This document shows, one piece after another, positions 13,390-54,444 of a stretch of 64,000 bases of DNA (position 1 is the stretch's first letter; every line of letters begins with the position of its first letter). The position numbers were made by a program, and so were the translations under genes. The stretch comes from Vibrio tarriae (lineage in GTDB: Bacteria; Pseudomonadota; Gammaproteobacteria; Enterobacterales; Vibrionaceae): the NCBI RefSeq assembly GCF_002216685.1, contig NZ_CP022352.1, forward strand, positions 248,001 to 312,000, in the 5' to 3' direction. Under the pieces are notes generated by a model, which saw only the letters and a list, made by a program, of their open reading frames with translations, made no database searches and was not told the origin of the DNA.

Positions 13390-13517
13390 TATACCCAAAC
13401 TACTTGGAGTTGCAGGTAGGCGGCAAGTGAGTTCATCCCCATGAGCATAGATACACTATGTGATTGGGGTGAACGAACGTAGCCAACACCGCTGCAGCTT
13501 CAAGTAGGAAGGGTATA
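13390..13517 (+). repeat. ERIC element (128 bp)
   Basis: Full-length copy bounded by TATACCC and GGGTATA, with the conserved core CCCCATGAGCATAGATACAC and GATTGGGGTGAACGAACG. It lies between the export operon promoter and the aldo/keto reductase gene. Confidence 0.92.
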
Positions 13518-47106: not shown

Positions 47107-47142
47107 TAAAAAGGGGCGTGGTTTTCACCACGCCCCTTTTAG
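47107..47142. terminator. Strong bidirectional terminator
   Basis: AAAAGGGGCGTGG / CCACGCCCCTTTT, 13-bp perfect stem with TTTTCA loop, 17 bp past the cold-shock stop on the minus strand. It also ends plus-strand transcription from the SIMPL gene. Confidence 0.88.
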
Positions 47143-47158
47143 AATCAATCTGAGCTAA

Positions 47159-47371
47159 TTACAGCGCAGTAACTTGAGCAGCTTGTGGGCCTTTTTTGCC
47201 TTGCTCAACGGTGAAGCTTACACGCTGGCCTTCAGCCAGAGTTTTGAAGCCTTCAGAAACGATAGACTTGAAGTGTACGAACACGTCTTGACCGCCGTTG
47301 TCTTGAGAGATGAAACCAAAACCTTTAGTTTCGTTGAACCATTTTACTGAACCAGTCATTTTCTGAGACAT
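47159..47371 (-). CDS. cspA: CspA-family cold-shock protein (second copy)
   Basis: 70 residues. [15 protein letters not shown] (RNP1 KGFGFI) and DVFVHFKSI (RNP2). About 60-70% identical by eye to the copy at 27978. In V. cholerae I recall the copy in this neighbourhood as CspA. A ~245-bp AT-rich upstream gap fits a long cold-shock leader. Ends at a strong terminator. Confidence 0.93.
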
Positions 47372-47616
47372 AGTAACCTCTGATATATATTTGCTATGAG
47401 TTTATTTGGCTGATAACGAAAGCTATTGAATGGTATATCAAGACAAAGTTGACGCAGGTTTAACGAGATATCGAAAACGATCTGAGATTGAACTTTCACT
47501 GAATTTAACATTAACAACTCTTACCTAAGAGCCGAGGTAAACTATACACGTATTTTTTCGAAACGCTACATTTATTTGTGTTATTTGCCAAAGCGTAAGA
47601 AATCTGCTGGATAATG

Positions 47617-50931: not shown

Positions 50932-51168
50932 TGTGAATATTGAATATCGTCGATAACTCAGCGGGCAGACTAAAGTGAAGCGTGAGAAAAGTAAATATCT
51001 TCCTGCATCTGGATGCAGAGAAAAATAGCGGAATAAATGTGATTCACCACCCACTGTTTTATTTTTTGTTAGCGTATTCTCAATTTGTTCATTTGTCAGA
51101 TGACGAATGGCTATTTTCATCCATAATCAAAGTGGGTTTGAAATGAATCATTTCAAATAGGTGAAAAT

Positions 51169-51240
51169 ATGAGAATGCACAACAACTCTAGTATCTGGTT
51201 TACCCTCGATTATAAAATCGCTTTCTTCTTTCCTGCGTAA
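51169..51240 (+). CDS. tnaC: TnaC-type leader peptide of the tryptophanase operon
   Basis: 23 residues: MRMHNNSSIWFTLDYKIAFF then FPA, too short for standard gene finding. AGGTGAAAAT precedes the ATG. Compared with E. coli TnaC, the key residues keep their spacing: Trp10 (W12), Asp14 (D16), Lys16 (K18), Ile17 (I19) and Pro22 (P24). In E. coli, free tryptophan stalls the ribosome after this Pro and so prevents Rho from terminating before tnaA. Here one Ala follows the Pro, and the stop is UAA rather than UGA, so stalling may be at Pro-Ala bond formation or at a later step. Confidence 0.88.
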   Translation: MRMHNNSSIWFTLDYKIAFFFPA

Positions 51241-51711
51241 TCCCTTCTCGCGTGAATGACTAGGCATGTTTTGCAGTCAATCGACTGCAATCCGGTTTTG
51301 TTATTCCGCTTTCTTACTCGCTTGACGCATGGCTTTATATACCCAAACCACTTGGAATTGCAGGTAGCTGGCAAGGGTGTTCATCCCCATGAGCATAGAT
51401 AAACTCTGTGATTGGAGTGAACGAACGTTGCCAACACCGCTGCAGCTTCATGTAAGCATGGGGACATCGCTTACTGCCAGATATCGACAATTTTAAGTCT
51501 ATCCAATGACTTATATTGGTATTTATCTGTGTTTAGTTAAGCCATTGAAGAAAATATAAATATGCGTTTTAAGCTTTGTAAGCATTAAATATGCATTCGC
51601 TTCGACGTAGATATTATTTACGTCATAGCTGCATAGTGAATCAATCTCAGCACAAGGAATTTAATTTATTCCTTGCACGACTTTATATTTTAATTTTTAG
51701 GAATACCCAGC
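51241..51711 (+). promoter_or_regulatory. tnaC-tnaA spacer, Rho-controlled leader enlarged by an ERIC
   Basis: 471 bp, compared with about 220 bp in E. coli. It begins with pyrimidine-rich sequence (CTTTCTTCTTTCCTGCG at the end of tnaC) and no intrinsic terminator is obvious, consistent with Rho-dependent control. An ERIC element fills 51338-51466. Without it the spacer is ~340 bp. A W-containing micro-frame at 51330 is an ERIC by-product. Confidence 0.65.
51338..51466 (+). repeat. ERIC element in the tna leader
   Basis: TATACCCAAACCACTTGGAA... to GCTTCATGTAAGCATGGGGACAT; the right terminus has diverged (GGGACAT in place of GGGTATA). It is transcribed with the tna leader and will form a long stem-loop in the RNA. 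Confidence 0.85.
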
Positions 51712-53130
51712 ATGGAAAATTTTAAACACTTACCAGAACCTTTTCGTATTCGTGTTATTGAACCTGTTAAACGTACCACACGGGAATATCGTGAAAAAGC
51801 GATTTTAAATGCCGGAATGAACCCCTTTTTGCTCGATAGTGAAGATGTATTTATTGACCTGCTCACCGACAGCGGCACTGGCGCTATCACCCAGGAGATG
51901 CAAGCCGCCATGTTCCGTGGTGATGAAGCCTACAGCGGCAGCCGAAGCTACCACGCACTCGCGAGAGCGGTTAAAGATATTTTTGGTTATGAATACACGA
52001 TTCCGACCCACCAAGGACGTGGTGCAGAGCAGATTTATATTCCTGTTTTGATTAAAAAGCGTGAAAAAGAGAAAGGACTCGATCGCAGTAAAATGGTCGC
52101 CCTATCTAACTACTTTTTCGATACCACTCAAGGCCATACCCAAATCAACTGCTGTGTTGCCAAAAACGTATATACCGAAGAAGCGTTTGATACTGGCGTA
52201 AAGGCCGATTTTAAAGGCAATTTCGACTTAGAAAAGCTCGAACAAGCGATCCTTGAAGCGGGCCCAGCAAACGTCCCATATATTGTCAGCACCATCACTT
52301 GTAACTCTGCTGGCGGCCAACCGGTTTCGATTGCTAACTTGAAAGCCGTGTATGAGATTGCCCAACGCTACGACATCCCCGTGATCATGGATTCCGCTCG
52401 TTTTGCTGAAAACGCGTATTTTATTCAGCAACGAGAACGCGATTATCGCAACTGGAGTATCGAAGAGATCACGCGTGAAGCTTACAAATACGCAGATGGG
52501 CTCGCGATGTCGGCCAAAAAAGATGCCATGGTGCAGATGGGCGGCTTACTCTGCTTTAAAGACAAAAGCTTCTTTGATGTGTACACCGAATGCCGAACTC
52601 TGTGTGTGGTTCAAGAAGGCTTCCCAACCTACGGCGGCCTAGAAGGCGGCGCGATGGAACGTTTGGCGGTTGGCTTGTATGACGGTATGCGCCAAGATTG
52701 GCTCGCATATCGCATTAATCAAGTCGAGTATTTGGTGAACGGTCTTGAAGCGATTGGCGTGGTTTGCCAACAAGCCGGTGGCCATGCCGCGTTTGTCGAT
52801 GCGGGAAAATTGCTACCTCACATCCCAGCAGATCAATTCCCTGCACATGCTTTAGCTTGTGAACTCTATAAAGTCGCAGGTATTCGCGCAGTAGAAATTG
52901 GCTCACTCTTGCTTGGCCGTGACCCGGCAACGGGCAAACAGCACCCTTGCCCTGCCGAATTGCTCCGTTTGACCATTCCTCGCGCGACTTATACGCAAAC
53001 CCATATGGATTTCATCATCGAAGCGTTTGAGAAAGTCAAAGCCAATGCGCATAAGGTCAAAGGGTTAGAGTTTACCTACGAGCCTCCAGTGTTGCGCCAC
53101 TTCACTGCGCGTTTAAAAGAAAAAGCCTAA
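51712..53130 (+). CDS. tnaA: Tryptophanase
   Basis: 472 residues, the E. coli TnaA size. PLP enzyme of the beta-eliminating lyase family: [26 protein letters not shown] near the N-terminus, substrate Tyr/Arg regions, and the PLP lysine in [19 protein letters not shown] (about residue 270). It cleaves L-tryptophan to indole, pyruvate and ammonia; indole is a biofilm and community signal in V. cholerae. Expression is expected to need tryptophan via tnaC and usually CRP. Confidence 0.97.
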
Positions 53131-53229: not shown

Positions 53230-54444
53230 ATGTCGAAACAACCCTCTCTGTTTGGGGGAGCCTGCATTATTGCCAGCGTCTGCGTAGGTGCTGGTATGCT
53301 TGGTCTCCCCAGCGCAGGTGCCGGAGCATGGACTCTCTGGTCTATGTTGGCGCTCGCTTTAACCATGGCGGTCATGACGCTTTCAGGCTGGATGCTACTT
53401 GAAGCCTTTAAACACTATGATCTTCGAGTCTCGTTTAATACCGTGACCAAAGATATGCTAGGCAGCCATATCAATCGCTTTAACAACCTGACCGTTTACT
53501 TTGTCGGCGGCATCTTGCTGTACGCCTACATCACCTCTTCTGGTTTGATTTTGCAGGATTTACTGCATATCAATAGCAAAATAGCCTCGATACTCTTCGT
53601 GGCGGTATTTTCCGCTTTCGTTTGGCATTCGACTCGCGCAGTGGATCGTATCTCGGTTATTTTGATCGTGTTTATGGTTCTGAGCTTTATTTTTGGTGTT
53701 TCAGGATTAGCGATCAATGTGAAAACATCCATCCTATTTGACACCCTAAATAAAAGTGGTGAGTACGCTCCTTATGCGATGGCAATGCTGCCCGTTGCGC
53801 TGACCTCGTTTGGTTATCATCACTCCGTTTCATCCATGCGTGCCTATTACGGCGAAGAGCACAAAGCCAAGTACGCGATTTTGGGAGGCACAGTGATTGC
53901 GTTAAGTCTTTATGCGCTTTGGCTGTTCAGCATTTTTGGCAATTTACCTCGTGCCGATTTTGCGCCTGTCATACAGCAAGGTGGGAATGTGGATGTGCTT
54001 TTAAAAGCCTTAGGTTCGGTGGTGGAGTCGGAGAAAGTCTCACAAGCGATCAACGCCTTTTCGATGGCCGCGATCCTATCTTCCTTTATCGGCGTTGGCT
54101 TAGGCGTATTTGATTTTCTGGCCGATTTATTTCAGTTCAGCAACTGTAAACAAGGGCGTACCAAAACTTGGCTGGTCACCTTTTTGCCACCTCTCATTCT
54201 CTCTTTGCTGTTCCCATTCGGCTTTATCATTGCGATCGGTTACGCAGGCGCAGCCGCCACTATTTGGGCCTGTATTATCCCAGTACTGCTTGCGCGTAAA
54301 TCGCGCACTTTAGCCAATGGAGCACAAGGTTTTGTTGTACCAGGTGGTAATGTGGCGCTGGGTGTCGTGTTGATCTTTGGTGTGCTGACTGCGGTTTTCC
54401 ACATGATGGCGATGGCCAATTGGTTACCGACTTTTACTGGGTAA
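53230..54444 (+). CDS. tnaB: Aromatic amino acid permease (TnaB/Mtr/TyrP family)
   Basis: 404 residues from the ATG at 53230 (AAGGAT upstream; an earlier in-frame start adds seven residues). HAAAP family with 11 TM helices: GGACIIASVCVGAGMLGLPSAG at the N-terminus is diagnostic, then ALTSFGYHHSVSSMRAYYG and SFIGVGLGVFDFLADLF. It imports tryptophan (or tyrosine) by proton symport. Placed after tnaA as in E. coli, so tryptophan uptake for catabolism is the likely job; tyrosine specificity cannot be excluded. Confidence 0.9.
   Translation: MSKQPSLFGGACIIASVCVGAGMLGLPSAGAGAWTLWSMLALALTMAVMTLSGWMLLEAFKHYDLRVSFNTVTKDMLGSHINRFNNLTVYFVGGILLYAYITSSGLILQDLLHINSKIASILFVAVFSAFVWHSTRAVDRISVILIVFMVLSFIFGVSGLAINVKTSILFDTLNKSGEYAPYAMAMLPVALTSFGYHHSVSSMRAYYGEEHKAKYAILGGTVIALSLYALWLFSIFGNLPRADFAPVIQQGGNVDVLLKALGSVVESEKVSQAINAFSMAAILSSFIGVGLGVFDFLADLFQFSNCKQGRTKTWLVTFLPPLILSLLFPFGFIIAIGYAGAAATIWACIIPVLLARKSRTLANGAQGFVVPGGNVALGVVLIFGVLTAVFHMMAMANWLPTFTG

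What the first reader, a model, noticed from the sequence alone, without database searches (positions are those of the whole stretch)
51169..51240. Unannotated tnaC leader peptide with an altered stalling end (Pro-Ala-UAA)
A 23-codon frame 471 bp before tnaA conserves the E. coli TnaC critical residues at identical spacing (Trp to Asp 4, Trp to Pro 12, with Lys and Ile in place). Unlike E. coli, the critical Pro is followed by Ala and the stop is UAA, readable by RF1 and RF2. The E. coli mechanism, tryptophan blocking RF2 at UGA directly after Pro, cannot apply unchanged. Stalling may block peptide-bond formation with Ala, or a different step.
Basis: partly seen in the sequence, partly recalled or inferred. 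Interest (0 to 1): 0.72.

Follow-up and report, generated by a model that had tools for sequence, protein, structure and literature searches.

The report
TnaC leaders with swapped stalling ends
The short peptide in the window is an ordinary, already named tryptophan sensor before the tryptophanase gene, but its relatives in other marine bacteria often lack the proline thought essential for stalling the ribosome, and some sit before other genes, which hints at a wider tryptophan-controlled gene set.

Summary
Window 51169-51240 encodes MRMHNNSSIWFTLDYKIAFFFPA-UAA, 471 nt before tnaA. The peptide is an ordinary TnaC: 43 bits against TIGR02616 (cut-off 23.55), and a 2015 paper names V. cholerae tnaC VCA0161.1. 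Pro followed by a sense codon is the Proteus vulgaris type, where tryptophan blocks elongation. UAA is not special: an E. coli-identical TnaC elsewhere ends in UAA. Best reading: free Trp stalls the ribosome with Pro22 in the P site and the Ala codon in the A site, shielding the spacer from Rho.

Following the family led further. Of 176 tnaA loci scanned, 174 have such a leader (shuffles: 1-5). The sensor half stays; the stalling end varies: Pro at W+12 79, Pro at W+11 21, Pro-less LSSE-stop 57, other Pro-less 6, two leaders in tandem 11. Another Pro-less end (SK) precedes a second tryptophanase type. TnaC-type leaders also precede ridA-porin-pdxY, a porin alone, a second pdxJ with epd, and yitT-aminotransferase genes; elsewhere ridA and the porin lie inside the tna operon. 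I infer exchangeable stalling ends and a tryptophan regulon. No stalling was tested.

The parts
51100..51127 (+). promoter-like ATGACG - 16 nt - CATAAT
   Evidence: 9 of 12 consensus matches, but 3 such sites found in the region against 3.3 expected in shuffles. Among the 7 rows printed (own plus 6 relatives), CATAAT is kept in 7 and ATGACG in 6.
51159..51164 (+). Shine-Dalgarno-like AGGTGA of tnaC
   Evidence: sequence
51169..51240 (+). tnaC leader peptide, 23 aa, Pro22-Ala23-UAA
   Evidence: TIGR02616 43 bits; only own-genome hit
51241..51711 (+). tnaC-tnaA spacer, 471 nt; the presumed Rho region
   Evidence: No terminator-like site in it. Rho use is inferred from E. coli and P. vulgaris.
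51338..51457 (+). copy of a multi-copy repeat inserted in the spacer (right end approximate)
   Evidence: 41 matches to window 51335-51490 in the own genome, itself included. A repeat start is absent from the spacers of 6 of the 7 other relatives and present at another offset in L104. Other copies in the window score as Rfam V_AS5; this copy did not reach the gathering score.
51712..53130 (+). tnaA, tryptophanase, 472 aa
53230..54444 (+). tnaB-like aromatic amino acid transporter
   Evidence: TIGR00837 438 bits, cut-off 350

Best explanation
The window holds a normal tna operon head. The nascent TnaC peptide, with W10, D14, K16, I17 and P22 in place, forms a site for free L-tryptophan in the ribosome tunnel. 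With tryptophan bound, the ribosome stalls with Pro22-tRNA in the P site and the Ala codon in the A site: a block of elongation, as in P. vulgaris, not of release as in E. coli. [quoted passage not shown] Phe before Pro (E. coli R23) should make it more tryptophan-sensitive. Shown: anatomy, family match, conservation. Inferred by homology: the stall, its codon, the Rho step.
For: TIGR02616 equivalog match. Critical residues and spacing, tnaA and tnaB-like gene behind. In 66 distinct Pro-12-with-extension sequences F precedes Pro in 65 and 29 different tails follow Pro, as expected if the stall is at Pro and the next residue is free. The P. vulgaris precedent (PMC3902921, passages). R23F in E. 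coli raises basal expression more than 20-fold and lowers the tryptophan needed (PMC8429421, passages). PMC4332508 (passages): V. cholerae tnaA needs CRP and has the E. coli-like leader layout.
Against: No toeprint, ribosome profile or tryptophan-induction datum for this leader was found. Rho use and rut in this spacer were not tested; in 90 nt after the stop C exceeds G in 89% of the 82 Pro-12-extension leaders scored, a weak sign only. A repeat inserted in the spacer could disturb the E. coli-like layout.
Confidence: 0.83

Rival explanations
1. One reading: Pro-Ala-UAA means a stalling step not covered by known TnaC mechanisms.
For: No E. coli-type stop directly after Pro; no experiment on this leader seen.
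Against: P. vulgaris precedent; UAA after an E. coli-identical TnaC; Pro-12 with extension alone in 72 of 174 leaders.
Confidence: 0.05
2. On the relatives: Pro-less leaders (LSSE, SK) no longer sense tryptophan by arrest; they are decayed, or act by another mechanism such as plain translation of the leader.
For: In E. coli P24C abolishes induction (PMC10941005, passages). LSSE scores 21.2 bits, under the TIGR02616 cut-off of 23.55, and Pro-11 forms get no hit. No functional datum.
Against: Strong protein-level constraint. LSSE is the only leader found at 57 of 174 loci. R23H partly rescues P24C, so Pro is not absolute.
Confidence: 0.27
3. LSSE conservation reflects an RNA or DNA element, not the peptide.
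For: S12 is TCT in 45 and S13 is TCA in 40 of 50 distinct sequences.
Against: Leu at W+11 uses all six codons, Glu both, stop UAA and UAG; pN/pS 0.21 on codons that were not search conditions.
Confidence: 0.07
4. Leaders away from tnaA are chance or dead leftovers of rearrangement.
For: Few cases: G504 is single, the pdxJ pair are close relatives, four porin cases share one site. The spacer contrast is weak in the pdxJ pair and mixed in the ridA pair. A 49% porin homologue in G227 and 11 more distant porins have no leader.
Against: Found by models that did not contain them at per-genome E 1.8e-11 (G504), 2.9e-8 to 2.0e-6 (five porin cases), 3.2e-4 and 4.2e-4 (pdxJ), 6.5e-4 to 2.8e-3 (G165, G200, G257). 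Porin set: core 85.2% identical, spacer 67.3 and 66.0%. ridA and porin lie inside the tna operon in G284.
Confidence: 0.2

Closest known systems
TnaC of Proteus vulgaris (elongation arrest)
   Same: W, D, hydrophobic at W+7 and Pro, then sense codons; Phe before Pro (recalled for P. vulgaris)
   Different: One residue after Pro (Ala), not Lys-Lys; shorter N-terminal part (P. vulgaris length recalled; 24 to 36 residues is the range in PMC3902921)
TnaC of E. coli (termination arrest)
   Same: Same critical residues and spacing, before tnaA, TIGR02616
   Different: Pro followed directly by UGA in E. coli; Phe instead of Arg before Pro in the window
V. cholerae VCA0161.1 (TnaC leader)
   Same: Probably the same gene: leader before tnaA on the small chromosome (PMC4332508, passage)
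   Different: Identity of the window's genome was not given, so not proved
SpeFL, L-ornithine sensor
   Same: Metabolite-bound arrest that blocks RF1 at a stop; a possible parallel for LSSE-stop, which never uses UGA in 67 rows
   Different: Other ligand, no sequence likeness claimed; known here from passages of PMC8429421

Membership tests
TnaC (TIGR02616), window peptide | Profile score over the curated cut-off | tested here: met
   43 bits, cut-off 23.55
TnaC (TIGR02616), window peptide | W12, D16, I19, P24 equivalents in order, short ORF before tnaA | tested here: met
TnaC (TIGR02616), window peptide | Tryptophan-dependent ribosome arrest | not testable with these tools
   no experiment possible
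TnaC (TIGR02616), window peptide | Rho-dependent attenuation in the spacer | not testable with these tools
   only composition was looked at; no intrinsic terminator-like site in the spacer
Proteus vulgaris-type TnaC, window peptide | Sense codon after the critical Pro | tested here: met
   Pro22-Ala23-UAA
TnaC (TIGR02616), LSSE leaders | Profile score over the cut-off | tested here: not met
   one peptide tested: 21.2 bits; three genomes hit with 19.6 to 21.1 bits, all under 23.55
TnaC (TIGR02616), LSSE leaders | Critical Pro at W+12 | tested here: not met
   Ser in 50 of 50 distinct sequences (the class was defined by a pattern that allows Ser or Thr there)
TnaC (TIGR02616), LSSE leaders | Sensor residues W, D and I/L at W+7, place before tnaA | tested here: met
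   W and D were search conditions; W+7 was not, and is L, I or V in 67 of 67. 18 of 19 hits with E 1.4e-9 or better lie beside a tnaA listed.

The most novel reading that the evidence does not exclude
TnaC is a two-part device: a fixed tryptophan-sensing half and a ribosome-stalling half that has been exchanged several times in nature: FP-x, LP-x, LSSE-stop without proline, SK-x without proline. LSSE-stop would be a termination arrest on Glu-tRNA at a stop read by RF1. Different ends work on the same ribosomes: seven genomes carry two kinds at separate loci, besides those with tandem leaders. The device has also been copied to genes outside tnaA that could serve tryptophan breakdown: a porin, RidA, the PLP kinase PdxY, a second PdxJ with Epd, and an aromatic aminotransferase, which together make a tryptophan regulon run by nascent peptides.
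Probability: 0.5. Interest if true: 0.78.

Novelty: new variant of a known kind. Interest (0 to 1): 0.5.

Why it matters
The window peptide itself adds little. The natural variants matter because Pro24 is treated as one of four essential TnaC residues (PMC8429421 and PMC10941005, passages), and here conserved leader families do without it. They are ready-made test cases for the proposal that TnaC has separate sensor and stalling domains (PMC10941005). If the leaders before porin, ridA and PLP genes work, one nascent-peptide sensor would control a set of operons and not a single one.

Tried and rejected
Considered and dropped: UAA as an oddity; an RNA-level reason for LSSE; an intrinsic terminator in the window's spacer (none); the long spacer as a regulatory feature (a repeat insertion). 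Rfam at gathering level found nothing at the leader. Pfam Tna_leader (PF08053) does not match the window peptide.

Led nowhere or against: the 15 tnaA paralogues of 69-74% identity, L182-L196, gave no leader pattern, although three others of a similar kind, G272, G015 and G288, do have leaders. L255, L256 and L257 (51, 51 and 46% homologues) gave no convincing leader. A porin homologue at 49% (L289) and eleven at 32% or less (L290-L300) have none. Own genome: no hit with the LSSE or the Pro-11 model. Ten weak hits (E 0.003 to 0.01: G098, G274, G268, G267, G111, G104, G169, G273, G186, G242) were not read.

Limits of counts: W, an F/Y/I/V/C after it and D at +4 were search conditions, and LSSE was defined by a pattern with Leu at W+11 and the stop at W+15; one search repeats the test without that. 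15 paralogue loci were left out; 3 loci had too little upstream sequence (L068 and L169 are the same stretch); L146 and L179 had no hit. L146 has a leader further up: the G140 hit ends 1371 nt before tnaA. The 'other' hits at L046 and L056 were judged noise by eye. L069 and L168 are the same stretch, both counted under Pro-11. More duplicate species between the two collections cannot be excluded. The strict-pattern control used loci chosen for their hits.

Full report
What is at the coordinates. The + strand holds a 23-codon frame at 51169-51240, MRMHNNSSIWFTLDYKIAFFFPA, stop UAA. AGGTGA lies four bases before the ATG. tnaA follows at 51712 and a TnaB-like aromatic amino acid transporter at 53230. 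W10, D14, K16, I17 and P22 match E. coli W12, D16, K18, I19 and P24 in order and spacing. The facts in the finding are right except 'unannotated'. The peptide is an equivalog match to TIGR02616 tnaC_leader, 43 bits. PMC4332508 (passages) says that the V. cholerae tnaA leader encodes TnaC, annotated VCA0161.1, with a predicted CRP site upstream; tnaA is activated by CRP and repressed by H-NS there. PMC3136459 (one passage) lists tnaC in a table. Its tnaA is 98% identical to those of V. mimicus and V. metoecus, so V. cholerae or a very near relative is my inference.

Is the mechanism new. For this peptide, no. PMC3902921 (passages) says that tryptophan blocks RF2 at P24 in E. coli but blocks transfer to Lys-tRNA at K33 in P. 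vulgaris. The window peptide is of the second kind. UAA is no problem: in L209 the full E. coli peptide is followed by UAA, and L211, L212 and L215 also end Pro-UAA. The residue before Pro is Phe. In E. coli R23F raises basal expression more than 20-fold and raises tryptophan sensitivity, and Phe is said to be common there in homologues (PMC8429421, passages). So this leader probably stalls in elongation and is sensitive. PMC10941005 was read in the first of seven parts and in passages.

The survey. I scanned upstream of 179 tnaA genes of at least 83% identity to the window's: 80 named loci, 79 unnamed Vibrionaceae loci with the window's own among them, and 20 from other families of the order (chosen from the list). 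Three had too little sequence. Of the other 176, 174 had a W...D leader within 700 nt. Ten mononucleotide shuffles gave 1 to 5 of 176, and the reverse strand 1 of 176. By stalling end, with two noise hits removed by eye: Pro at W+12 with an extension 72, Pro at W+12 then stop 7, Pro at W+11 21, Pro-less LSSE-stop 57, other Pro-less 6, two leaders in tandem 11. W and D were search conditions. W+7 was not: it is L, I or V in 183 of 187 hits, against 12 of 34 in shuffled hits. In 66 distinct Pro-12-extension sequences F precedes Pro in 65 and 29 different tails follow, so the residue after Pro is free.

The LSSE leaders. The class was defined by a pattern, so its Leu at W+11 and its length are conditions. 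Without that pattern, choosing leaders by the N-terminal part alone (M at W-17, Y or H, then L or Y), 62 of 69 have LSSE-type ends; the other 7 are five second leaders of tandems, one Pro-11 form and one other. In 50 distinct LSSE sequences W+12 is Ser in 50, W+13 Ser in 48 and W+14 Glu in 48; Leu uses all six codons and Glu both. pN/pS is 0.148 from W to the end and 0.208 on the eight codons that were not search conditions, with synonymous sites near saturation. The stop is UAA in 28 and UAG in 39 of 67 rows, never UGA; the rows are related, so this is only suggestive. A conserved run up to a fixed stop suggests a stall at the stop with Glu in the P site. That is inference. On a quick tnaA tree of 79 rows the label LSSE needs 6 changes, 4 of them forced by starred branches, and LSSE present at all, tandems included, also 6. 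The tool flagged long branches and uneven base make-up, and transfer of tnaA could add to the count.

Tandem leaders. In 11 of 174 loci a Pro-less leader is followed by a Pro-12 leader: eight named Photobacterium, V. tapetis, and two unnamed (L124, L134). In five of them (L020, L022, L024, L025, L124) both leaders share an N-terminal part like MNxYLKW, so the pair looks like a duplication there; in others the likeness is weak. More tandems were read at L225, L226 and L227.

A second tryptophanase type. The roughly 58% identical tryptophanase of other vibrios (NF009709 749.7 and 748.7 bits over a cut-off of 285, but under the stricter TIGR02617 cut-off; L229 and L232) has another Pro-less leader, WYNxDYxLSLxxKxx. 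Lys stands at the Pro position in 14 of 14 Vibrionaceae loci read (L229-L242). Nine were read because a profile hit lay there; five (L238-L242) were chosen for the gene alone and all five have it. The residue after Lys varies. Four loci of group f17 have other Pro-less ends (L246, L247, L248, L252), while L243, L244, L245, L249-L251, L253 and L254 have Pro at W+12 with a tail.

Leaders away from tnaA. In G165 and G200 a leader lies before ridA, a porin gene and pdxY; in G257, G233, G223, G212, G151 and G246 before the porin (names). In G289 and G260 a leader lies before pdxJ and epd, facing the tna operon a few kb away. These two genomes have a second pdxJ on their other contig, 82% identical, while G290 and the window's genome have one copy. 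In G504 an LSSE leader lies before yitT (PF02588) and an aromatic amino acid transaminase gene (NF006719 564.3 bits, cut-off 377); G504 is not among the genomes with a tnaA match at E 1e-100. In G284 the order is leader, tnaA, tnaB, ridA, porin on one strand; in G289 and G260 ridA follows tnaB. So genes that lie inside the tna operon in some species carry their own TnaC-type leader where they stand apart. That RidA clears reactive enamines and that PdxJ, Epd and PdxY make or recycle PLP, the cofactor of tryptophanase, is general knowledge.

Weak points of that part. G165, G200 and G257 were rows of the model used, but were first met with the LSSE model at E 6.5e-4 to 2.8e-3, a level where about one chance hit in 329 genomes is expected. 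The pdxJ pair stood at 3.2e-4 and 4.2e-4. G233, G223, G212 and G151 share one site beside a glmS-like gene (by eye), so the porin and ridA cases are perhaps three or four placements. In the porin set the W-to-stop stretch is 85.2% identical against 67.3 and 66.0% in the spacer; in the pdxJ pair the contrast is weak (93.8 against 86.0 and 85.1%), and in the ridA pair mixed (78.2 against 63.2 and 85.3%). Ten weak hits were not read.

Same genome, different ends. G246, G165, G200, G257, G289, G260 and G121 each carry two kinds of end at separate loci. In G165 the LSSE leader and tnaA lie on different contigs. So the ends are not matched to different ribosomes.

Conclusion. The finding is a true member of a known family with a known variant end. 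Following it across the family gives a claim that I did not find described: a constant sensor joined to exchangeable stalling ends, some without proline, at several operons. On print: nine paper searches were made, four answered and five timed out. No paper in the library holds both TnaC and Photobacterium. The 2008 and 2009 papers of the Yanofsky group were not held, so I cannot say that Pro-less leaders are unpublished.

Noticed in passing
window 51338-51457; other copies near 13390, 36494 and 38924: A multi-copy repeat (41 matches in the own genome) sits in the tnaC-tnaA spacer. Two of the window's copies score as Rfam V_AS5, so that 'antisense RNA' family looks like an interspersed repeat.
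   Followed up: partly
L104 spacer; L284, L285 and L326 leader-porin spacers: A similar repeat lies at a different offset in the tnaC-tnaA spacer of L104, and by eye also in the leader-porin spacers of L284, L285 and L326: repeated landing in leader spacers.
   Followed up: no
window 51137-51157: A 9-bp-arm inverted repeat, TTTGAAATG-AAT-CATTTCAAA, directly before the tnaC Shine-Dalgarno site; arms perfect in L104, L003 and L002 and nearly so in the other three relatives printed. Role unknown.
   Followed up: no
L329 1810-3224: tnaA of G248 is read in two adjacent frames behind an intact-looking leader WFTIDYKIAFHFPA; possibly a broken gene or a sequencing error.
   Followed up: no
L218 3355-4086 and 2242-3261; L219: Second copies of pdxJ, with epd, beside the tna operon in two vibrios: PLP genes duplicated next to a PLP enzyme.
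   Followed up: partly
window 47108-47536 (-): cspA thermoregulator RNA (RF01766, 111.9 bits).
   Followed up: no
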